Positions 39,414-50,850 of a DNA stretch of 64,000 nt are shown one piece after another; the stretch's first letter is position 1; every line of letters begins with the position of its first letter. Below the pieces are notes generated by a model, which was not told the origin of the DNA, searched no databases, and worked only from the letters and a program-made list of their open reading frames with translations. A program made the position numbers and the translations under genes. The DNA is taken from contig JAGVDM010000006.1 of the NCBI GenBank assembly GCA_020058765.1, positions 1-64,000 on the forward strand. Direction: 5' to 3'. This DNA is from Candidatus Peribacterales bacterium. Lineage in GTDB: Bacteria; Patescibacteriota; Gracilibacteria; Peribacterales; Peribacteraceae.

Positions 39414-40160
39414 ATGGATAAAGAAGCCACACCACAAGAAGTAGAAGCGCATCTCGCAGCAGATGCACATGGACATGATTTGGGACCGTACATTCACGAT
39501 ATCGTATACGGCGGAAACGACGGTATCGTGACGACATTCGCCGTAGTCGCGGGAACGGTGGGAGCGGCCATGCCCGACTACGTCATTATTATTCTGGGGC
39601 TCGCAAACTTGTTCGCGGATGGATTTTCTATGGGCACGGGGAGTTTCCTTTCTCTGAAATCCGAACTCGATCAGTACAGAAGACTGCGCAAAGAAGAGTC
39701 CGATGAAATAGACCATGCCCCAGGAATCGAACGAGGCGAAATCCGCCATTTCTTCCAGAAGAAAGGGCTGCAAGGCAAACCACTGGATGACTTGGTGACT
39801 TCGGTGACAAGCAACAAAGAAACGTGGCTGGATGTCATGATGTGCGAAGAGCACCACATGACCGAGGAACAAACAGGATCACCCCTCCGGCACGGGATCA
39901 TGACATTCGTATCGTTCTGCATATTCGGCAGCGTCCCTCTGCTCCCCTACCTGTTTGGCATTCCAGAGCAGCAGCGGTTCCCCGTCGCAATCGGCTCAAC
40001 ATTGGCAGCACTCATACTTTTGGGCATCAGTCGTAGTTTCGTAACAAAAGAGCGCCTCATTCGCGGTGCAGTGGAAGTGGTTACCGTTGGATCGGGCGGG
40101 GCAATTATCGCCTATGCAATCGGCGCGGCACTGCGAACACTCGTAGGCGTTGCTCTTTAA
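39414..40160 (+). CDS. VIT1/CCC1 family Fe/Mn transporter
   Basis: 248 residues with about five transmembrane helices. [25 protein letters not shown] is the first family motif; [23 protein letters not shown] the second. A cytoplasmic Glu/His-rich metal-binding loop follows ([21 protein letters not shown] and [10 protein letters not shown]), then three C-terminal helices. The family moves Fe2+ or Mn2+ out of the cytosol. Probably cotranscribed with the ABC exporter (12-bp gap). The stop overlaps the pdxT stop on the opposite strand. Confidence 0.9.
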
Positions 40161-40735
40161 GAGGCAATAAACAACCGATGAATCGACTCCTCATCTCGTA
40201 ACTCGGGATGGCAAGTGAGCGCCCACACATTCCCCGCACGAACGATGACGGGGTGTTCCCCGTGCATGGCGAGCACCTCCACATCTTTTCCTACGTGTGT
40301 AATTACGGGGGCGCGGATAAAGCTTGCCCGTACCGGTCGATCAACATGCGACACGATGAGTGACGCATCGAAGCTTTCCAGTTGATTCCCATAGGCATTG
40401 CGATCAATCGTGATATCGATCAATCCGAGCGATGCGGGAGGGTTCTTGCCTGTGATCTTCGTAGCAACAAGAATGGCACCTGCACAAATACCCATCACGG
40501 AGAGTGTGCTGGCACGACAACGGTCAGTAATAGCTGCATCCAACCCTGTAGAAGCAAGCAGCAGACTAATAGTTGTACTCTCACCACCAGGAATGATGAG
40601 GTGCGTGCACTGTTCCAGATCTTGCACGGTACGCACGTACTGCACCTGTACGCTCATGGCAGCCAAGAGCGCTGCGTGCTCAGCGAAATTCCCCTGCAAT
40701 GCCAGTATGCCTACGGTGACAGTTTTAGTGGCCAC
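40157..40735 (-). CDS. pdxT: Pyridoxal 5'-phosphate synthase glutaminase subunit PdxT
   Basis: 192 residues from GTG at 40735. It supplies ammonia from glutamine to Pdx[18 protein letters not shown] opens the class I amidotransferase domain; [26 protein letters not shown] (nucleophile Cys) and [11 protein letters not shown] (His-Glu of the catalytic triad) are all present. The GTG overlaps the end of pdxS by 11 bp, a typical coupled arrangement. An open frame continues upstream in this phase through pdxS but is not coding. Confidence 0.95.
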
Positions 40736-41612
40736 GATGCTGCATACTGAGCTCCAACTGCGCAATCTCCTGCCCCGCCATTGCCTGGCCGATCCCTGAG
40801 GAAACGTCGGCAAGGAGTGCGGCATCATTGAAGTGCGTGGTTGCCTGCACAATCGCCGCTGCGCGACGCTGCGGATCAGAGGACTTGAAGATCCCCGACC
40901 CGACGAACACACCTTCGGCGCCAAGGCTCATGACCAATGCTGCGTCTGCTGGAGTAGCAACACCACCGGCGACGAACGTAACTACAGGGAGTCGCCCTGC
41001 CTCACGAACGGACTCTACAAGGTTCGCATCTACACGCTCCTGCTCAGCGAAAGCCGTACGGTCTGCTGCAGTCATATCTTGGAGAGCGGCGATCTGGCGT
41101 GTGATGAGCTTGAGGTGACGCACCGCCTCCACGATGTTCCCCGTACCGGCCTCGCCCTTGGTGCGAATCATTGCTGCTCCTTCGGAAATACGGCGCAGTG
41201 CCTCGCCAAGCGAGGTAGCGCCGCATACGAACGGAACGCTGAATGATGCCTTCTGCACATGATCAAATGGATCTGCAGGCGTGAGCACTTCGCTCTCGTC
41301 GATGAAGTCGACACCGATCGCCTCTAGAATGCGTGCCTCGGCCGTATGGCCGATGCGTACTTTGGCCATTACAGGAATGGATACGGCCTCACGGATCTCG
41401 CGAATGAGCGCAGGATCGCTCATGCGAGCCACGCCGCCCTCTGCTCGGATATCGGAAGGAATGCGCTCCAGCGCCATCACTGCACACGCACCGGCTTCTT
41501 CGGCAATCACTGCCTGTTCTGCTGTGGTGACATCCATAATGACGCCACCCTTGAGCATACGCGCAAGGTCTTCGCCGAGGGTGTTCCGAGTGTGCTTCAC
41601 GGGCTTGAGCAT
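40725..41612 (-). CDS. pdxS: Pyridoxal 5'-phosphate synthase subunit PdxS
   Basis: 295 residues from ATG at 41612. The TIM barrel that makes PLP from ribose 5-phosphate, glyceraldehyde 3-phosphate and ammonia. Signatures: [51 protein letters not shown] with an active-site Lys, [13 protein letters not shown], and [12 protein letters not shown] purine-rich GCAAAGGGGT stretch precedes the ATG. A much longer frame extends upstream but runs antisense to idi and is spurious. With pdxT this is the DXP-independent vitamin B6 route. Confidence 0.97.
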
Positions 41613-41659
41613 ACCCCTTTGCGCAGCCAGACGGGAGCAGAGAATCCGGATTTTTCTGA

Positions 41660-41686
41660 GTATGGCACACGAGTCACTTGCCATAC
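41660..41686. promoter_or_regulatory. Inverted repeat between pdxS and idi, candidate operator
   Basis: GTATGGCA (41660-41667), 11 bp, TGCCATAC (41679-41686), a perfect 8-bp inverted repeat in the 100-bp divergent region. Centre-to-centre spacing of about two helical turns suits a dimeric repressor; an RNA hairpin in the idi leader is the other reading. Confidence 0.5.
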
Positions 41687-41712
41687 CGAAGCATCGAGGC
41701 GAACATGCAATC

Positions 41713-42228
41713 ATGAAGCACGTCGTACTCTGCAACGAGCAGGGCGAACCTGCAGGAACCATGGAAATCCTGCAAGCGCACGCAGGAAACGGGACGCTCC
41801 ATCGAGCGTACTCAGTATTCGTATTCCGCAACGGCGGCAACGAACTCCTCCTGCAACAGCGCAGTGCAGCGAAGCCGCTCTTTCCGCTCTTTTGGGCCAA
41901 CACGTGCTGCAGCCACCCACAGCAGGGCGAAGGCATCGCAGAGTCTGCAGAGAAGCGCTTGCAGGAAGAAATGGGCTTCACCTGTTCGCTCAAGGAAGTA
42001 GGTTCGTTTGTGTACCAAGCGCCGGATCCCGAAGGGCGAGGCGCGGAACACGAATACGACACCGTGCTCATGGGCATGGTGGAAGATGACATCGGCGTGG
42101 AGCCGAATCCGACTGAGGTGGCCGATTGGCGATGGGTGAGCTTGGAAGAACTGCAACAAGAGCTGGATGAAACACCCGAGCTCTTTGCGCCATGGTTCCC
42201 GCAGGCGTTGAGCCTGATTTTCCGATGA
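41713..42228 (+). CDS. idi: Isopentenyl-diphosphate delta-isomerase, type I
   Basis: 171 residues. Interconverts IPP and DMAPP. The Nudix-like type I features are seen: [22 protein letters not shown] (63-73) with the catalytic Cys, [11 protein letters not shown] (Nudix helix) and the [10 protein letters not shown] segment with the metal/substrate Glu. [16 protein letters not shown] matches the usual N-terminus, so ATG 41713 is chosen; ATG 41662 is in frame but falls in the inverted repeat. First gene of the mevalonate/isoprenoid operon. Its stop overlaps the uppS start (ATGA). Confidence 0.94.
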
Positions 42229-42902
42229 ACGCAGACAAGCCGTTGCACCTAGCCATCATCCCGGACGGCAACCGCCGTTGGGCAAAAAAGCGCATGTTGC
42301 AGCCATGGAAAGGGCATGAAGAAGCGATCCATACGATCGAGAATATCCTCGAGTGGTGTAGGCAGCGTGAGGACATTGCCGTACTGACCCTGTGGCTGTT
42401 TTCGACGGAGAACTGGAAACGTGATTCCGTAGAAATCGAGAAACTGATGCACATGCTCTTGGAATACCTACAAAAAGAACGTGCATCCTTCACGGAAAAA
42501 CAAACACGTTTCGTGCACTCTGGCCGCAAGGATCGCATCCCTAAGGAGCTGGCGACATTGATTGCGGATATCGAAGCAGAAACAGCAGCATTCTCCCGGT
42601 ACACACTGCACCTTGCACTCGATTACGGCGGCAAGGATGAACTGCTCCGTGCACTCGGAAAGCTGCAGAGCGATGCGCCTACAGACGAAGAAGTACGCGC
42701 TGCACTTGATCATCCCGAACTCCCAGATATCGACATCATTGTGCGTACATCTGGCGAGCATCGCACAAGCAACTTCTTCCTATGGCAGAGCACATATGCG
42801 GAGTGGTTCTTCGTGCCACAGTTTTTCCCCGATCTTACAACGGAGGATCTGGAAGGAATTCTCTCGGAATTTCACAAGCGTGGACGCCGCTTTGGGGGCT
42901 AG
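42225..42902 (+). CDS. uppS: Undecaprenyl diphosphate synthase (cis-prenyltransferase)
   Basis: 225 residues. Elongates farnesyl diphosphate with IPP units to the C55 lipid carrier for cell-wall synthesis. [15 protein letters not shown] (11-25) contains the catalytic Asp 14 and the phosphate-binding NRRWA. Also [13 protein letters not shown], the [10 protein letters not shown] region, [23 protein letters not shown] and FVPQFFPD. All conserved Arg positions of motif V are present. Overlaps idi by 4 bp, so carrier-lipid and precursor synthesis are coupled in one transcript. Confidence 0.95.
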
Positions 42903-42914
42903 AATACGGCAAGT

Positions 42915-43766
42915 ATGACCCGCCAAGGCCATGCATGCGGCAAGATCATTGTGAGCGGCGAATACGCTGTGCTCTTTGGGGAACCAGGGCTCGCGCTCCC
43001 CGCAGCAATGGGCATAACGGTGGAGTACCTAGAGAATCCCTTACGCGGCACATTGGATGTGCATTGGGAACACGATGGTGGAGCGCTCTGGAATGCATAC
43101 CTCATGCAGATTCTTTCGCTCGTCGAACATGCGAAAGGGCAGCTGCTCACGGGAACGCTCAGTATCACCAGTACATTACCGCTCGGCAAAGGCATGGGAT
43201 CGTCCACAGCGCTAGTGATTGCCTGCTGCAGGGCGATACTTGGGGAGCACTGCGAGCAAGAGGCGCTGGATATCGAAAACAAGGTAAACCCCGGTCACAG
43301 CGGAGTGGATTTTGCGGCCATCTGGCTCCAGAAACCGATTCTGTTCGTGCGTGGTGAACCCGCACAGATTGTTGCATTGCCACCGGACGTGCTGGCAAAT
43401 GCGCTGCTCCTGGATACAGGCACACCGGATCAACCAACGCCCGAGCTTGTGGCATGGGTACGAGAACACGAACGGCAGCTACGTGCGCCACTACAGAATA
43501 TCGGCGAATGCTCACGGCGCATTGCCGGCGATGAGGATATCTCCACCGTATTGCGCGCACACCATCGTGCACAGGTTGCACTGGGTGTCGTGCCAGACTT
43601 CGTGCAGGCAATCATCGCAGAAATTGAAGCATCAGGCGGGGCAGCAAAGGTCATTGGTGCAGGAGGACAATCCGGCGGAGCAGGAATGGTGCTTGTACTG
43701 GGCATGGAACAAGAAGACCTGCGCCGGATTGCAGGTGAGCGTGAAATTTTCCCTCTGCACGCATGA
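42915..43766 (+). CDS. mvk: Mevalonate kinase (GHMP family)
   Basis: 283 residues, short but complete. Phosphorylates mevalonate at O5. The N-terminal CGKIIVSGEYAVLFGEPGLALP is the mevalonate kinase start (GK.ILFGEHAVV.G.PA.A). The GHMP ATP-loop LPLGKGMGSSTAL (89-100) and ENKVNPGHSGVDFAA (E..(H).NPSG.D) and a C-terminal KVIGAGGQSGGAG (GAG-GGC-like motif) are present. It could act on phosphomevalonate instead, but the N-terminal motif favours mevalonate. 12 bp after uppS; overlaps mvaD by 4 bp. Confidence 0.88.
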   Translation: MTRQGHACGKIIVSGEYAVLFGEPGLALPAAMGITVEYLENPLRGTLDVHWEHDGGALWNAYLMQILSLVEHAKGQLLTGTLSITSTLPLGKGMGSSTALVIACCRAILGEHCEQEALDIENKVNPGHSGVDFAAIWLQKPILFVRGEPAQIVALPPDVLANALLLDTGTPDQPTPELVAWVREHERQLRAPLQNIGECSRRIAGDEDISTVLRAHHRAQVALGVVPDFVQAIIAEIEASGGAAKVIGAGGQSGGAGMVLVLGMEQEDLRRIAGEREIFPLHA

Positions 43767-44768: not shown

Positions 44769-45935
44769 ATGGATCTACGCACACTCCCCGACGGCATGAC
44801 CCCGGCAGAACGCTGCGATGAGCGTCGCCAGAGAATCGCTCAGGAAAGCGGTATCGACCTCTCGAACGTTGGTGTAGATGCACGGAGAATCGGCACTGCA
44901 GAAGAGAAGAATTGTGAGCAGATGTTCGGCCACATACCGCTGCCTGTGGGAATCGCAGGATCGCTCGTTGTGCACTTCAGCAGCCAAGAACGCGCTGAGG
45001 TGTACGTGCCACTCGCCACAACAGAAGGTGCACTGGTCGCCAGCACCAACCGAGGGTGCAAAGCAATCACCGAGAGCGGTGGGGCACGCGTGACGCACGT
45101 CCACCATGGAACATCTCGCTCACTCGCATTCCACTGTACTAGCACAGATGGTGTACGATCGTTCATGGCTTTTCTCAAAGGAAAAACTGATAAATGGACT
45201 ACAATCGGAGAGGCAACGAGCGGTCATTTGCATCTGCTTTCGTACACGATTGATGCAAAAGATGATCATGTGTTCCTCACTATTTTCTGTGACACAGATG
45301 AAGCAATGGGAATGAACATGGTGACCATCGCTGCGCAGGCGATTGGCGAGTGGGCCGCAGAGCACCATGAGGGTGTGCAATTCGTCACTGTTGCCGGGAA
45401 TGTGGATAGCGACAAAAAACCGAGCGAGCGCGTGCACCAGAATGGGCGAGGATACAGCGTGACCGCTTTCGTCACACTTCCCTCTGCTGTGATTGCCTCG
45501 GTACTCAAAACAACACCGGAGGCAATGCTGGGCGTTGCTCGCGCAAAGCTGGAACTGGGCTCATCCGTCGCGGGAGCAATCGGCCACAACCTGCATGCAG
45601 CCAATGTGATCGCCGCCATCTACCTGGCAACCGGGCAAGATGCGGCGCACACAGTGGAAGGATCGCTCACAGATACGACCGTAACACAGGAAAAAGACGG
45701 CCTCACCGTCACAGTACGACTCCCGGCGGTATTGGTAGGCGTGCGAGGCGGAGGAACAGGTCTCCCTGCACAGTCGCAATGCCTCAATTTACTCCTGCAG
45801 CCGGGCACTGCCCTCACTAGCCGCGTACAACTTGCCGAAACCATTGGCGCAGCGGTACTGGCAGGCGAAGTGTCACTTCTGGCTGCCCAGGCGAGCCATA
45901 CGCTTGCGAGGGCACACCGGGAATTGGGGCGCTAA
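44769..45935 (+). CDS. Hydroxymethylglutaryl-CoA reductase, class I
   Basis: 388 residues, soluble, without the membrane domain of eukaryotic forms. Reduces HMG-CoA to mevalonate. Motifs: CEQMFGHIPLPVGIAGSL, PLATTEGALVASTNRGCKAI (catalytic Glu about 86), DEAMGMNMVTIA (NADPH-binding DAMGMN form), AGNVDSDKKPSE with the catalytic Lys, GHNLHAANVIAAIYLATGQD with the catalytic His, and VRGGGTGLPAQSQCL. The DKKP and GTGLP-type motifs match class I (archaeal/eukaryotic) rather than class II. ATG 44769 is one base after the mvaD stop. Confidence 0.95.
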   Translation: MDLRTLPDGMTPAERCDERRQRIAQESGIDLSNVGVDARRIGTAEEKNCEQMFGHIPLPVGIAGSLVVHFSSQERAEVYVPLATTEGALVASTNRGCKAITESGGARVTHVHHGTSRSLAFHCTSTDGVRSFMAFLKGKTDKWTTIGEATSGHLHLLSYTIDAKDDHVFLTIFCDTDEAMGMNMVTIAAQAIGEWAAEHHEGVQFVTVAGNVDSDKKPSERVHQNGRGYSVTAFVTLPSAVIASVLKTTPEAMLGVARAKLELGSSVAGAIGHNLHAANVIAAIYLATGQDAAHTVEGSLTDTTVTQEKDGLTVTVRLPAVLVGVRGGGTGLPAQSQCLNLLLQPGTALTSRVQLAETIGAAVLAGEVSLLAAQASHTLARAHRELGR

Positions 45936-45936
45936 A

Positions 45937-47055
45937 ATGACCGGAGAACGTTTGAGGAATACCGCAATTTCAGCGAGAATAGGTGCTCGGCACAATAGAC
46001 CGACTATCGCGATGCCAACATCGAATCGGAGTGCCATTATCGGCTTCGGTATGTGTCTGCCTTCCGAACGCATCCGCGTGACGGAAATCGCCAACGCCTG
46101 GCAACAGGATGGTGCAGGCGTGAGCGCGGCTATTGGCGTAACCGAGAAAACCGTACCCGGAGAGGGGCAGGATAGCTTTACGCTAGCCTACGAAGCAGGC
46201 AAGCAAGCTATTGCCATTGCCGGCATTCAGCCCAGTGAAATCAGTGCGGTATTCGTAGGATCCGAGAGCCACCCCTATGCGGTAAAACCTACGAGCGGCA
46301 TGGTGGCCGATGCACTGGGAGTGCACCCATTCTGCCACGCTGCAGACCTCGAGTTTGCCTGCAAAGCCGGCACGGCCGGGCTGCAGATTGTGGATGCATT
46401 CGTACGCTGCAAGCAGATCCGCTACGGCCTTGCGATCGGCAGCGATACTGCGCAATCAAAGCCGGGTGATGCATTGGAATACACGGCTGCGGCTGGTGCT
46501 GCAGCATTCGTAGTAGGACCGGACAGCGCGAAGAACGCACTTTGCAGAATCGATTCGACCCTATCTTTCACTACCGATACGCCGGACTTCTGGCGCGCAG
46601 GAAACGCACAGTACCCCAGCCACGGCGGGCGGTTCACAGGAGAACCCGGCTACTTCCATCATGTGCGCACCACGGTGCAAGGCATGTTGGAACAAGCAAA
46701 ACTGGAAGCCAAAGACCTCGACCACGTGGTGCTCCACATGCCCAATGGCAAGTTCCCGTCGCGTATTGCCAAGGAGTGTGGGTTCACTAAAGAACAAATG
46801 CGCTGCGGATTCATCGTGCCGCACATTGGCAACACCTATAGCGCATGTTCCCCCATCGGCCTGGCGCATGTGCTTCAAGAAGCCAAGAAGGATCAACGCA
46901 TATTGCTGGTGTCCTATGGCTCCGGCGCGGGGTGCGACGCGTTCCTGTTCACCATGCTGCGGGACGGTGTTGCATTACCATCTGCAACTACAGAAACCAC
47001 ATACGTGGAATACGCCGAATACCGCAAACGTTCCGAAACACTCTCGCTGCATTAA
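45937..47055 (+). CDS. Hydroxymethylglutaryl-CoA synthase, archaeal type
   Basis: Condenses acetyl-CoA and acetoacetyl-CoA to HMG-CoA. With the ATG at 45937 (one base after the previous stop) the protein has 372 residues; family similarity starts near ATG 46012 (IIGFGMCLPSERIRVTEIA), leaving a 25-residue extension that may not be translated. Catalytic residues: Glu in FVGSESHPYAVKPT, Cys in DLEFACKAGTAGLQ, His in VVLHMPNGKFPSR. GNTYSACSPIGLAHVL and the VSYGSGAGCDAFLF end match archaeal HMG-CoA synthases. Followed by thiolase with TAATG overlap, the archaeal gene pairing. Confidence 0.92.
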   Translation: MTGERLRNTAISARIGARHNRPTIAMPTSNRSAIIGFGMCLPSERIRVTEIANAWQQDGAGVSAAIGVTEKTVPGEGQDSFTLAYEAGKQAIAIAGIQPSEISAVFVGSESHPYAVKPTSGMVADALGVHPFCHAADLEFACKAGTAGLQIVDAFVRCKQIRYGLAIGSDTAQSKPGDALEYTAAAGAAAFVVGPDSAKNALCRIDSTLSFTTDTPDFWRAGNAQYPSHGGRFTGEPGYFHHVRTTVQGMLEQAKLEAKDLDHVVLHMPNGKFPSRIAKECGFTKEQMRCGFIVPHIGNTYSACSPIGLAHVLQEAKKDQRILLVSYGSGAGCDAFLFTMLRDGVALPSATTETTYVEYAEYRKRSETLSLH

Positions 47056-48170
47056 TGGATCAAATGATCTCCATCATCGGCACAGGCCAAACGCCGTTTG
47101 GTGAGCACTGGGATAAGAGCCTGCACGACCTCATTGCCGATGCTGTACAGAGCGCAATCGAAGCTGCGCGCTGTACACCGCTCGATATCGACATGGTCAT
47201 TGTGGCAAACATGATCGGTGAGCGCTTAAGCGGCCAGGCACACCTAGGTGCACTGACGGCATCGCTGCTCCCCCACCACCCACCTGCACTGCGAGTGGAA
47301 GCCGCTTGCGCCTCCGGCGCAGTAGCCATGCACACTGCATGCGCGCTGCTAGAAAGCGGCAAGGCGCAAACCGTGCTTGTTGTAGGAGCCGAGAAAATGA
47401 CCGACGCAACGAATGAAGAGGTAGCCGCAGCACTCATGGGTGCGGCAGATAGCGAAAAGGATGCGCCCGCGGGCATTACATTCCCCGGACTCTTTGGCCT
47501 GGTGGCACAACGCTACATGCATGAGTACAACCTCTCGCGCGAGGACTTAAGCTGCGTTAGTGCACTCCATCATCGCAATGCTGTGGGGAATCCCTACGCA
47601 CAATTCCGCAAAGAAATTTCCGCGGAGGAAATCTCTGCGAGCGCGCTTATTGCCGATCCACTTCGTCTGCTCGATTGCTCACCAGTAAGCGACGGTGCAG
47701 CTGCGTGTATCCTCTCTACAAAGTTTGAGGGGCCTGTGCGTATTGCTGCATCACAACTAGCAACCGATGCCGTAAGCCTACTCGATCGACCATCCATCAC
47801 AAGCTTTCGGGCAACTAAGACCGCAACAGAACGAGCACTCGCAGAAGCGAATATTAAACTGCAGGATCTTCAGGCAATCGAACTGCATGACTGTTTCTCT
47901 ATTGCAGCAGTGATCAGCGTGGAGGATATGGGGCTGGCAGAACCGGGCACTGGTGTGCAGCTCTACAAAAAGCCGGACGGCAATCTCGTACTCAATCCAA
48001 GTGGTGGGCTCAAGGCATGCGGTCATCCTGTTGCGGCCACCGGGGTAAAGCAGGTCATCGAAATCAGTAAATGGCTGCAAAACAACAATCTCCGCTGGGG
48101 CGCGACCCACAACTTCGGCGGTACAGGCGCCACTTGTGGTATGCATATCCTCGAACGACACAATGGATAA
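47055..48170 (+). CDS. Acetyl-CoA C-acetyltransferase (archaeal/SCPx-type thiolase)
   Basis: 371 residues. Makes acetoacetyl-CoA from two acetyl-CoA, the first step of the mevalonate route. IIGTGQTPFGEHWDKSLHDL at the start, nucleophile Cys 85 in VEAACASGAVAMHTA, CSPVSDGAAACILS, ELHDCFSIAAV with the HDCF motif, NPSGGLKACGHPVAATG with the catalytic Cys-Gly-His, and the terminal NFGGTGATCGMHIL. In archaea such thiolases form a complex with HMG-CoA synthase bridged by a DUF35 protein; here the DUF35 part is in the next gene, which starts within the last codons (8-bp overlap). Confidence 0.92.
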   Translation: MDQMISIIGTGQTPFGEHWDKSLHDLIADAVQSAIEAARCTPLDIDMVIVANMIGERLSGQAHLGALTASLLPHHPPALRVEAACASGAVAMHTACALLESGKAQTVLVVGAEKMTDATNEEVAAALMGAADSEKDAPAGITFPGLFGLVAQRYMHEYNLSREDLSCVSALHHRNAVGNPYAQFRKEISAEEISASALIADPLRLLDCSPVSDGAAACILSTKFEGPVRIAASQLATDAVSLLDRPSITSFRATKTATERALAEANIKLQDLQAIELHDCFSIAAVISVEDMGLAEPGTGVQLYKKPDGNLVLNPSGGLKACGHPVAATGVKQVIEISKWLQNNNLRWGATHNFGGTGATCGMHILERHNG

Positions 48171-49107
48171 CACGGCACCCATCATCGCCCGCGCACAGCG
48201 CGACAGAAAAGTGCAGATGCAACACGGCACTGTGCTGTCGCTCACGACTGTACGGCACCCGCCTGCCGGTTTCCCAGATGCACCGCGTCGTATTGCAATG
48301 CTGCAGCTCGAGGACGGCAAAAAAGTATTGGGCCTCATTGTAGGCAAAGCTCCGCTACAGATCGGAGATACCGTCGCCCCACGCTTGCGGCTCACGCGCG
48401 TGAGCGAAGATGGTTTGCGCCGCTACGATGCATGCTACGAGCCAGTCGTCTCTGTACGCGAGGAGCTCACAACAGGCTCATGGCGATACATTGTGGCACT
48501 CACTGGACCTTCTGGCGTTGGGAAGTCCACGGTGAATGCACTGCTCGGGAACGTGTTCTCCGACTACGTGCAGCCTGTACCGATCCTCACCACGAGGCCG
48601 CGACGAAAAGGCGACAGCAACGAATATCGATATGTTACGCCCGAGGAGTTTGTAGCGCTGCGCAGCCAAGGTGACATCATTGCTGCCACACATATTCCCT
48701 CTACAACCGAAGAGCGCTGGTACGGGTACCAAGCGAGCGATATCGAGGCGATCTGGAGGCAGGGCAAGATCCCCACAGTGGTGACGGAAATGCACCTGCT
48801 ACAAGATTTGGCACGCCACTACGGTCGACGGTCGATCTTGTCGTGCGGCCTGTTGCCGCCAGGAAAGAGCCGCCGTGCAAAACTTTCACAATTACTGCAC
48901 CGTCTACGCGCGCGCGGCAGGGACAGCGAAGAAAGCATCCGCGATCGTTTGCGTAATGCAGAAGAAGATCTCAAGTTCTTCGATACACGCACAGATCTGT
49001 TCGATCACATTCTCGTAAACGAGGATTTAGAAAGCGTGATCGGCACACTGAAGGATTCTATCCTGCAGCTGGTACAACCCGTACGCCCCGCGCAAGCCGC
49101 AGCGTAG
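48163..49107 (+). CDS. DUF35-type OB-fold fused to a guanylate-kinase-like domain
   Basis: 314 residues, two domains. Residues about 19-95 (GTVLSLTTVRHPPAGFPDA, VLGLIVG, LQIGDTV, DACYEP) match the OB-fold of DUF35 proteins, which bridge thiolase and HMG-CoA synthase in archaea; the zinc-ribbon cysteines are absent. Residues 108-300 match guanylate kinase: Walker A GPSGVGKS (115-122), LTTRPRRKGDSNEYRYVTPEEF (142-163, split binding motif), WYGYQ in place of YYGT, the lid RLRARGRDSEESIRDRL, and FDHILVNEDLE. The family Glu of FLEHAEV is Ala 174, and the DIDxQG motif reads VTEMHL, so GMP contacts are altered. The architecture is unusual. It overlaps thiolase by 8 bp and ends the operon. Confidence 0.82.
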   Translation: MDNTAPIIARAQRDRKVQMQHGTVLSLTTVRHPPAGFPDAPRRIAMLQLEDGKKVLGLIVGKAPLQIGDTVAPRLRLTRVSEDGLRRYDACYEPVVSVREELTTGSWRYIVALTGPSGVGKSTVNALLGNVFSDYVQPVPILTTRPRRKGDSNEYRYVTPEEFVALRSQGDIIAATHIPSTTEERWYGYQASDIEAIWRQGKIPTVVTEMHLLQDLARHYGRRSILSCGLLPPGKSRRAKLSQLLHRLRARGRDSEESIRDRLRNAEEDLKFFDTRTDLFDHILVNEDLESVIGTLKDSILQLVQPVRPAQAAA

Positions 49108-49141: not shown

Positions 49142-50146
49142 GTGCCCAAAAAGAAGCAAGCACCAATACGTAGGTCTGTCATTGCACATGCAATTGCCAC
49201 CTGGTCTGTGGTCATCCTGTGCTTGGTGTGTATTGGCATTGTGAGCGTCCTGCATGGCAACAATCTGCTCGGGCAAATCTCCTCTTCGGGTACAAGCTCT
49301 TCCTCTGCCAGCGGCAGTGTGCGCCAAGTGATCGAAGATATTGAGCAGCAACGCATTGATGCCCTCTGGCAGGAGCGACTGAGCCGTGCAGAGACATTCT
49401 TCGTGGAACTGCGATCGGAGCAATCCACGCTCGCAAGCCTGCGACGATTTTTTGAGCAGAGTCGTATTCGTCAGCTGGAGCATCGCCGAACATGTGCGAC
49501 AGACCTGCGCACAGCAAGCAAATTCACCAAGCTGCCCGTGACGCTCCGCTGCTACAAGGCAGACCTGCAACTGGAAACAGAGCGGCTACGACGCCAGCAC
49601 GAAAACATAGAGCAAATGCTGGGCGTGAATGAAGACACGCGCAGTCTCGCGCTCACGCGACTTACACTCTTAAGTGACGCTATCAAAGCCATCATCACTG
49701 GTATCGATAGCAATGTGTATGCCGTCCTCGAAGACCTGGAAGAGAGCAAGCGCAATCTGCTCACCAACTACCGTGAACCAGCGTGGTTGCTGCTCACCAA
49801 ACTGCGTGCCGAGCAGCTTTCCACATGGACAGACGCACTCATTACACGAGCGGCACAGGCAGGAGAGACGCTCCCCGAAGCCGACGCAGCTGTACAGGAA
49901 CAGCTACTCGCCGGCATCCAATGCCTGGAGGAAGGCAGGAATCTGCTCGACTCCATCGGCATCTCCAGCACATTCCTCGATGCAAACCAGGCACTGCTAT
50001 CCGCAGTGGATCACCTGTCTGATTGCCCCACCGTGCTACGCAATGCGTTGGGCACTCCTGTTGAGGTAGAGGAGGTGCCAGCAGAGAACAATGTGGAAAC
50101 TATACAGCCTATGACTCGCCTGCAACGACGCTTGTTGCAACAGTAA
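49142..50146 (+). CDS. Membrane-anchored coiled-coil protein, unknown
   Basis: 334 residues. A basic N-terminus and one transmembrane helix (about 15-38, TWSVVILCLVCIGIVSVL), a Ser-rich stretch, then about 260 residues of helix-forming sequence with heptad-like Leu/Ile/Arg/Glu spacing and three or four Cys. No domain recognised; the layout suggests an extracytoplasmic coiled coil. GTG at 49142 follows a -10-like TACACT (49129-49134) by 7 bp, another apparent leaderless start. The metallopeptidase gene starts 2 bp after its stop. Confidence 0.6.
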   Translation: MPKKKQAPIRRSVIAHAIATWSVVILCLVCIGIVSVLHGNNLLGQISSSGTSSSSASGSVRQVIEDIEQQRIDALWQERLSRAETFFVELRSEQSTLASLRRFFEQSRIRQLEHRRTCATDLRTASKFTKLPVTLRCYKADLQLETERLRRQHENIEQMLGVNEDTRSLALTRLTLLSDAIKAIITGIDSNVYAVLEDLEESKRNLLTNYREPAWLLLTKLRAEQLSTWTDALITRAAQAGETLPEADAAVQEQLLAGIQCLEEGRNLLDSIGISSTFLDANQALLSAVDHLSDCPTVLRNALGTPVEVEEVPAENNVETIQPMTRLQRRLLQQ

Positions 50147-50148
50147 AC

Positions 50149-50850
50149 ATGGAAAACGCCCACATTCCCTTCCGCATTGAGCGGACGCGCAACCGTCATT
50201 CTCGTGCTGTATACCAAGAGGATACCGTGATTATTCGTCTTGCCCGTAATCTGTCGAAAACACAGGAGGAACACCATATTCATGAACTTCTACAGCGCAT
50301 GAAAAAAGTGCTGCTGCGCGAACGCTCGCGGCAGGAAATTTCCCCATTCGCCCCGTTACTCCGAGGAGAAACCGAGAGCAGCATTACGCTCGCCAATGGC
50401 ACGCAGCACATTGTGCAGCTTCACCCCGGTACACGCCTGCGTGCAGTACGGGAGCCTCATGGGATCTGGCGCGTGCACATTTCGCCGCAAACAGATCGTT
50501 GTGCCCTTCACAGGGCATTGTGGAACACCTTGTGTGCTGCGCAGCAGGAGCACATTACAACGCTCACTGCGCGCATCAATGCAGATACACTCCGGGTACC
50601 GTTTACGAATGTTCGGCTTCGCTTCGCCAAAACGCAGTGGGGCAGCTGCTCCACCAGAGGCACGCTCACGCTCAATCCTGCGCTCCTCTTTTTGCCAGAT
50701 GCACTGCTGCGATACGTGATCATTCACGAACTTGCGCATCGAGTGCACACCAACCACTCCGCACGGTTCTGGGACTTAGTCGAAAGTGCTGTGCCGAACG
50801 TTACGACGATTCGAGCGGAACTCCGTGGATACCGACTGCCATCATTGTGA
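50149..50850 (+). CDS. YgjP/SprT-like zinc metallopeptidase (DUF45)
   Basis: 233 residues. The C-terminal part is diagnostic: RFAKTQWGSCSTRGTLTLNPALLFLPD followed by VIIHELAHRVHTNHSARFW; HELAH (about 193-197) provides two zinc ligands and the Glu, with a third ligand expected in HSARFW. The N-terminal half has the beta-rich arrangement usual for YgjP-like proteins (RTRNRHSRAVYQEDTVIIRL). The family is cytosolic; its substrates are unknown. Cotranscribed with the preceding membrane protein. Confidence 0.88.
   Translation: MENAHIPFRIERTRNRHSRAVYQEDTVIIRLARNLSKTQEEHHIHELLQRMKKVLLRERSRQEISPFAPLLRGETESSITLANGTQHIVQLHPGTRLRAVREPHGIWRVHISPQTDRCALHRALWNTLCAAQQEHITTLTARINADTLRVPFTNVRLRFAKTQWGSCSTRGTLTLNPALLFLPDALLRYVIIHELAHRVHTNHSARFWDLVESAVPNVTTIRAELRGYRLPSL

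What the first reader, a model, noticed from the sequence alone, without database searches (positions are those of the whole stretch)
48163..49107. DUF35 OB-fold fused to a guanylate-kinase-like domain at the end of a mevalonate operon
Residues 19-95 look like the DUF35 OB-fold, which in archaea joins thiolase to HMG-CoA synthase (established for archaeal complexes). Here its gene directly follows those two enzymes but continues into a complete guanylate-kinase-like domain with Walker A and lid. I know of no described DUF35-kinase fusion. The kinase part has lost typical GMP contacts (Ala 174 in place of the FLE Glu; VTEMHL in place of DIDxQG). A kinase tethered to the HMG-CoA-forming complex suggests control of flux or a catalytic step in the pathway.
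Basis: partly seen in the sequence, partly recalled or inferred. Interest (0 to 1): 0.8.

Follow-up and report, generated by a model that had tools for sequence, protein, structure and literature searches.

The report
Scaffold-fused kinase completing mevalonate pathway
In a lineage of tiny uncultured bacteria (Peribacteria), the protein that holds together the first two enzymes of isoprenoid synthesis is fused to a kinase repurposed from guanylate kinase, which most likely supplies the pathway step, phosphorylation of phosphomevalonate, that earlier genome studies could not find.

Summary
Window 48163-49107 (+) encodes a 314-aa DUF35 OB-fold (PF01796) plus guanylate-kinase (PF00625) fusion; both pass Pfam cut-offs. 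It ends a mevalonate operon in a Peribacteria-type genome. Full-length fusions occur in 63 of 74 genomes of the order and in no other genome of the class. The genome has a separate, canonical gmk.

The OB half matches best the DUF35 subunit of the archaeal thiolase/HMG-CoA synthase complex, whose other two subunits the operon also encodes. The kinase half keeps the P-loop, the transfer arginines and the GMP-phosphate contacts, but its guanine contacts are replaced.

The pathway lacks any GHMP-type phosphomevalonate kinase (PMK), animal-type PMK, isopentenyl phosphate kinase (IPK) and dxr. A published Peribacteria reconstruction misses exactly the MVA-5P to MVA-5PP step. Where a GHMP-type PMK was gained, the kinase half (not the OB half) decayed: 8 of 9 sampled genomes, at least three and probably four origins. 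It is intact in all 46 sampled genomes without one, including two that swapped the decarboxylase but gained no PMK.

Best reading: a guanylate-kinase-derived PMK tethered to the HMG-CoA-forming complex (0.62). Main rival: IPK (0.2). Activity is untested.

The parts
48163..49107 (+). DUF35 OB-fold / guanylate-kinase-like fusion gene, 314 aa
48163..48456 (+). N-terminal helix and OB-fold (aa 1-98), DUF35-type, without the zinc ribbon
   Evidence: PF01796 aa 21-74; profile best PDB hit 6esq_E, E 2.5e-15; model pLDDT 85.8, best Foldseek hit 6esq_F
48457..48477 (+). linker (about aa 99-105), predicted disordered
   Evidence: pLDDT under 50 at aa 98-104
48478..49083 (+). guanylate-kinase-like domain (about aa 106-307)
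   Evidence: PF00625 56.8 bits; closed guanylate kinase-GMP structures Z 25, 189 residues, 27% identity
48505..48531 (+). Walker A GPSGVGKST (aa 115-123); K121 invariant in 47 intact homologues
48595..48723 (+). acceptor site: R145, Y155, R185, Y187 (R145, Y155, Y187 = yeast GK R38, Y50, Y78, phosphate contacts); A174 (and I141 just upstream) replace guanine contacts
48868..48948 (+). lid and transfer arginines R247, R249, R251, R253, R262 (aa 236-262)
   Evidence: invariant in 47 intact homologues
47055..48170 (+). acetoacetyl-CoA thiolase, archaeal type
   Evidence: best PDB hit 6esq_A, E 9.4e-75
46012..47055 (+). HMG-CoA synthase, archaeal type
   Evidence: TIGR00748 390.7 bits over cut-off; 6esq_I, E 5.7e-105
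44769..45935 (+). HMG-CoA reductase
   Evidence: PF00368 313.7 bits
43763..44767 (+). diphosphomevalonate/phosphomevalonate decarboxylase family, KYWGN and GSTEGH signature
   Evidence: TIGR01240 168.8 bits, just under cut-off; signature
42915..43766 (+). mevalonate kinase (GHMP family)
   Evidence: TIGR00549 72.6 bits, under cut-off; groups with mevalonate kinases 100/100
42192..42902 (+). uppS, polyprenyl diphosphate synthase
   Evidence: TIGR00055
41710..42228 (+). idi, type 1 isopentenyl diphosphate isomerase (start approximate)
   Evidence: TIGR02150

Best explanation
The fusion is a bifunctional scaffold-enzyme. [quoted passage not shown] Its kinase half descends from guanylate kinase and has become a phosphomevalonate kinase: ATP + mevalonate 5-phosphate gives ADP + mevalonate 5-diphosphate (inferred). 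It keeps the P-loop, the transfer arginines and the site that grips the acceptor's phosphate, while the guanine pocket is rebuilt (shown by alignment). It thereby supplies a pathway step with no other candidate gene in this genome, tethered by a short flexible linker to the complex that makes HMG-CoA.
For: (1) No other candidate. G000 (99% complete) has only two GHMP genes, mevalonate kinase and the decarboxylase, no animal PMK PF04275, one AA-kinase that is PyrH, and no dxr. Anantharaman et al. 2016 (PMC4736985) found the Peribacteria pathway except mevalonate-5P to mevalonate-5PP. (2) The fusion co-occurs with the mevalonate genes across 74 genomes, apart from two incomplete assemblies. (3) Natural experiment: genomes with a third GHMP gene, which groups with true PMKs at 100/98, have lost 7-14 of 59 invariant kinase positions but only 0-2 of 10 OB positions. 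This arose at least three, probably four times; relative rates rise in the kinase half. GHMP-PMK present: 8 decayed, 1 intact; absent: 0 decayed, 46 intact. (4) G072 and G035 swapped the decarboxylase without gaining a PMK, and keep an intact kinase half. (5) R145, Y155, Y187 are retained, guanine contacts replaced, and invariant R185 and R253 added. (6) EC 2.7.4.2 is already known in the P-loop kinase fold (PMC1079889).
Against: No activity data. The usual decarboxylase carries a phosphomevalonate-decarboxylase/dual signature, which would also fit an isopentenyl phosphate kinase role. The third GHMP kinase passes the mevalonate kinase model TIGR00549; it is called PMK from the tree, motif and operon position. 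The window's mevalonate kinase lies on a long branch (2.37). G037 keeps an intact kinase half beside a GHMP-PMK. The decay association counts few independent origins.
Confidence: 0.62

Rival explanations
1. The kinase half is an isopentenyl phosphate kinase. The decarboxylase turns mevalonate 5-phosphate into isopentenyl phosphate, and the kinase half makes IPP (an alternative mevalonate route with a new kind of IPK).
For: All 22 old-type decarboxylases aligned (21 with that site covered) have Asn instead of the DMD lysine and keep the PMD histidine, described as a PMD/dual feature (PMC11052028). The genome has no AA-kinase IPK. Decarboxylase and kinase state usually change together. In the same phylum G370 pairs a Q/H-type decarboxylase with a true IPK, NF040647 156 bits.
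Against: G072 and G035 pair an intact kinase half with a decarboxylase of the clade otherwise found with PMK, carrying the DMD lysine (KYMGK). The state of the kinase half follows PMK presence, not decarboxylase type. Invariant extra arginines suit an acidic acceptor better than isopentenyl phosphate. The Anaerolinea enzyme with the same signature accepts both substrates (from memory of Thomas et al. 2019; PMC11052028).
Confidence: 0.2
2. The kinase half is the mevalonate kinase and the window's GHMP kinase is the PMK.
For: The third GHMP kinase that makes the kinase half redundant passes the mevalonate kinase model TIGR00549.
Against: The tree puts the window's GHMP kinase with mevalonate kinases (100/100) and the third one with PMKs (100/98). 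In other Patescibacteria the third kinase sits beside a separate mevalonate kinase. The kept phosphate-binding residues suggest a phosphorylated acceptor.
Confidence: 0.06
3. A non-catalytic or regulatory kinase-like domain, comparable to MAGUK guanylate-kinase domains, that senses ATP or a metabolite and controls the complex.
For: It is tethered to the pathway-entry complex, and the domain is retained, not deleted, after decay.
Against: P-loop lysine and five transfer/lid arginines are invariant in 47 homologues, and several active-site residues are lost where a PMK is present. It would leave the pathway without the missing kinase.
Confidence: 0.06
4. A second GMP or nucleotide kinase that happens to be fused.
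For: Guanylate-kinase fold, Z 25.
Against: Separate gmk with guanine contacts kept. Score well under guanylate kinase equivalog cut-offs (78 of 160 bits). Guanine contacts replaced. Presence tied to mevalonate genes.
Confidence: 0.03

Closest known systems
[quoted passage not shown]
   Same: All three subunits of the window operon have their best PDB sequence hit in this complex.
   Different: Here the DUF35 subunit lacks the zinc ribbon and carries a kinase domain.
Bacterial and eukaryotic guanylate kinase (Gmk, PF00625)
   Same: Fold, P-loop, lid, transfer arginines, acceptor-phosphate site.
   Different: Guanine contacts replaced, extra arginines, fused to an OB-fold; far below equivalog cut-offs.
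Animal phosphomevalonate kinase (PF04275)
   Same: Proposed reaction, EC 2.7.4.2, also a P-loop kinase fold (PMC1079889).
   Different: Different P-loop family; PF04275 does not hit this genome.
GHMP-family phosphomevalonate kinase (TIGR01220; ERG8, TIGR01219)
   Same: Proposed reaction; apparently interchangeable with the kinase half in evolution.
   Different: Unrelated fold.
Isopentenyl phosphate kinase (NF040647, AA-kinase fold)
   Same: The rival proposed reaction.
   Different: Unrelated fold; absent from this genome.
Standalone DUF35 of mevalonate operons in other Patescibacteria (e.g. L133 8283-8681)
   Same: Same place in the operon after thiolase and a related OB-fold.
   Different: No kinase; those operons carry a GHMP PMK instead.

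Membership tests
DUF35 / OB_ChsH2_C (PF01796) | OB-fold matching the profile | tested here: met
   35.5 bits over 27.1; model matches 6esq_F
[quoted passage not shown]
   No cysteine before C91; the chain starts with one helix, then the OB strands
Archaeal thiolase/HMGS/DUF35 complex | Three homologous subunits encoded together | tested here: met
Archaeal thiolase/HMGS/DUF35 complex | Physical assembly with a shared CoA site | not testable with these tools
   no complex prediction or experiment was possible
Guanylate kinase (Gmk) | Fold and P-loop | tested here: met
Guanylate kinase (Gmk) | Equivalog score and guanine contacts (yeast S34, E69, S80, D98/D100) | tested here: not met
   78 of 160 bits; I141, A174, Y189, V207/E209
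GHMP-family PMK (TIGR01220) | GHMP fold and motifs | tested here: not met
   P-loop kinase; no GHMP match
Animal-type PMK (PF04275) | Profile match | tested here: not met
   no match in the genome at E 1
Phosphomevalonate kinase by activity (EC 2.7.4.2) | ATP-dependent phosphorylation of mevalonate 5-phosphate | not testable with these tools
   only comparative genomics
Isopentenyl phosphate kinase (NF040647) | AA-kinase fold and profile match | tested here: not met
   sole PF00696 gene is PyrH; no NF040647 hit for the fusion

The most novel reading that the evidence does not exclude
A new, guanylate-kinase-derived isoprenoid-pathway kinase (phosphomevalonate kinase, or a first P-loop isopentenyl phosphate kinase) that is covalently part of the thiolase/HMG-CoA synthase scaffold, and that is repeatedly displaced by the GHMP-family enzyme.
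Probability: 0.8. Interest if true: 0.82.

Novelty: new variant of a known kind. Interest (0 to 1): 0.76.

Why it matters
It offers a concrete candidate for a pathway hole reported for Peribacteria in 2016, and would be another case of phosphomevalonate kinase arising in a separate P-loop family. It also suggests a physical link between HMG-CoA formation and a later pathway step, and is directly testable with one purified protein. The repeated decay of the kinase half beside a GHMP enzyme is a clean example of non-orthologous displacement.

Tried and rejected
A supposed frameshift of the mevalonate kinase in G035 is a scaffold gap (run of N), so a 'two of three kinases' rule was dropped. The first assignment of the third GHMP gene as mevalonate kinase from TIGR00549 was revised after the tree and operon comparison. 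I then considered the kinase half as IPK because of the decarboxylase signature and demoted this after G072 and G035. Other AA-kinases sampled in the order are proB, not IPK. The genome-contig scan found the fusion only in Peribacteria-type records plus one labelled Kaiserbacteria; all other hits were 21-35% identical to the kinase half only, as expected of ordinary guanylate kinases. The literature searches found no DUF35-kinase fusion or guanylate-kinase-type PMK; Hoshino and Gaucher 2018 is not held. Whole-model VIA rows list only guanylate-kinase relatives because that domain fills the list, so human PMK was not compared structurally.

Full report
WHAT IS THERE. Window 48163-49107 (+) is one open frame of 314 aa. 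Pfam finds PF01796 at aa 21-74 (35.5 bits, cut-off 27.1) and PF00625 at aa 111-300 (56.8 bits, cut-off 25.2). AlphaFold with 47 homologues gives pLDDT 88.4, with a disordered linker at aa 98-104. The kinase half superposes on closed guanylate kinase-GMP structures at Z 25 over 189 residues. The first 100 residues alone match the DUF35 subunit of 6ESQ best, both as a model and as a sequence profile, E 2.5e-15. The zinc ribbon described for all DUF35 proteins (PMC2954200) is absent: there is no cysteine before residue 91.

CONTEXT. The gene ends an operon idi-uppS-mevalonate kinase-decarboxylase-HMGR-HMGS-thiolase-fusion. The fusion's start codon overlaps the thiolase stop by 8 bp. HMGS and thiolase match chains I and A of the same archaeal complex best (E 5.7e-105 and 9.4e-75). 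In that complex DUF35 holds the two enzymes together (PMC12329534). So the OB half very probably does the same here; this is inferred, not shown.

DISTRIBUTION. 63 of 74 genomes of the order carry the full fusion at 42-67% identity, and none elsewhere among 353 genomes of the class does. The closest named record is Candidatus Peribacteraceae STF1_71 at 67%. The genomes lacking it also lack GHMP-family mevalonate genes, apart from two incomplete assemblies, G022 and G028. In G014 the GHMP genes are gone and only a damaged remnant of the fusion is left, with both halves affected.

WHY A KINASE IS MISSING. G000 has two GHMP genes only, no PF04275, one AA-kinase gene which is PyrH, and no dxr. Other AA-kinases sampled in the order are proB. 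The 2016 description of Peribacteria reports the genes making mevalonate-5P and those using mevalonate-5PP, and calls the pathway near-complete (PMC4736985). A separate gmk with guanine contacts kept is on contig 6, so GMP kinase activity is already covered.

WHAT THE KINASE HALF KEEPS AND LOSES. In 47 intact homologues K121, R185, Y155, Y187, Y189, R247, R249, R251, R253 and R262 are invariant, and R145 is kept in 46. By alignment with yeast guanylate kinase, R145, Y155 and Y187 correspond to R38, Y50 and Y78, which bind the acceptor phosphate; the guanine contacts S34, E69 and S80 are I141, A174 (A/S/T) and Y189 (contact roles from general knowledge of guanylate kinase). This fits a phosphorylated acceptor that is not GMP.

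THE NATURAL EXPERIMENT. Nine genomes carry a third GHMP gene next to a different decarboxylase. That gene passes the mevalonate kinase model, but in an IQ-TREE analysis it groups with true PMKs (3k17, 1k47 and a TIGR01220-positive protein) at 100/98, while the window's GHMP kinase groups with mevalonate kinases at 100/100. In eight other Patescibacteria genomes the same gene occurs with a separate mevalonate kinase gene and the decarboxylase, in operons several of which have a detectable standalone DUF35. So it is most likely a PMK. In eight of the nine genomes the kinase half has lost 7-14 of 59 invariant positions, while the OB half has lost 0-2 of 10. Y155 is lost in 8 of 8, Y187 and R253 in 7, R185 and R262 in 6; two also lost the P-loop lysine. 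The tree of the fusion needs four changes, at least three forced by supported branches. G047 (decayed) is sister to G048 (intact); on the G047 branch the kinase half has 39 unique changes against 12, the OB half 9 against 6. The ninth genome, G037, is intact; its close relative G036 has the old arrangement, so a recent gain is plausible. Among 46 sampled genomes without the GHMP PMK none is decayed (Fisher p about 7e-9 for 8/1 against 0/46, computed by hand; one search printed 6e-9 for 0/47; neither is corrected for shared ancestry).

PMK OR IPK. The usual decarboxylase of the order has Asn in place of the DMD lysine and keeps the PMD histidine in all cases where the sites are covered, a pattern reported for PMD and dual-specific enzymes (PMC11052028). 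That would fit decarboxylation first and an isopentenyl phosphate kinase last, and it nearly changed the verdict. Two genomes argue against it. G072 and G035, from different genera, carry the other decarboxylase clade with the DMD lysine (KYMGK) but no GHMP PMK, and both have an intact kinase half. So kinase integrity follows PMK absence and not decarboxylase type; this contrast rests on 8, 1 and 2 genomes (p 0.05). The extra invariant arginines also suit an acceptor with a carboxylate. I therefore put PMK at 0.62 and IPK at 0.2.

WHAT IS SHOWN AND WHAT IS INFERRED. Shown: the fusion, its conservation, residue retention and loss, the absence of known alternatives, and the association with the GHMP PMK. 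Inferred: the reaction, the assembly with thiolase and HMGS, and any benefit of tethering. Steps 1-2 and the PMK step are not consecutive (HMGR and mevalonate kinase act between), so direct channelling is not claimed.

NOVELTY. PMKs are known as GHMP kinases and, in animals, as a P-loop kinase; IPKs as AA-kinases. A guanylate-kinase-derived enzyme for either reaction, and any DUF35-kinase fusion, were not found in the literature searched; PMC2954200 lists DUF35 fusions to thiolase, dehydrogenase, SCP2 and hot-dog domains only. I rate it a new variant of a known kind.

Noticed in passing
L056 7501-8427 (G014): Damaged remnant of the fusion in a genome without GHMP mevalonate genes; both halves affected, unlike lineages with a GHMP PMK, where the OB half is kept.
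   Followed up: partly
L044, L046, L050, L041, L054 (new-type decarboxylase): New-type decarboxylases have Asn in place of the catalytic Asp (FT(L/I)NTGQD). D281N in Saccharolobus DMD keeps activity (PMC9254496), so this may be tolerated.
   Followed up: partly
L248 9892-10491 (-), genome G497: A small P-loop ORF (GLQGAGKST) next to a mevalonate kinase and an M/H-type decarboxylase, in a genome where no PMK was seen nearby and none of the few AA-kinase genes looks like an IPK: possibly another unrecognised pathway kinase.
   Followed up: no
L136 1181-1894 (-), genome G370: A true isopentenyl phosphate kinase (NF040647, 156 bits) in a bacterial mevalonate cluster with a Q/H-type decarboxylase and a PMK-like GHMP gene.
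   Followed up: partly
L140 (JACRFK010000003.1): Record labelled Candidatus Kaiserbacteria holds a full fusion at 54% identity; probably a mislabelled Peribacteria MAG.
   Followed up: no
window 49142-50146 and 50149-50850 (+): An uncharacterised 334-aa protein and a YgjP-like metallopeptidase follow the fusion and recur beside it in several relatives (L061, L078, L079, L080).
   Followed up: no
window 40157-42248 (-): PdxT- and PdxS-like genes (PLP synthase, by eye from the translations) lie on the opposite strand next to the operon.
   Followed up: no
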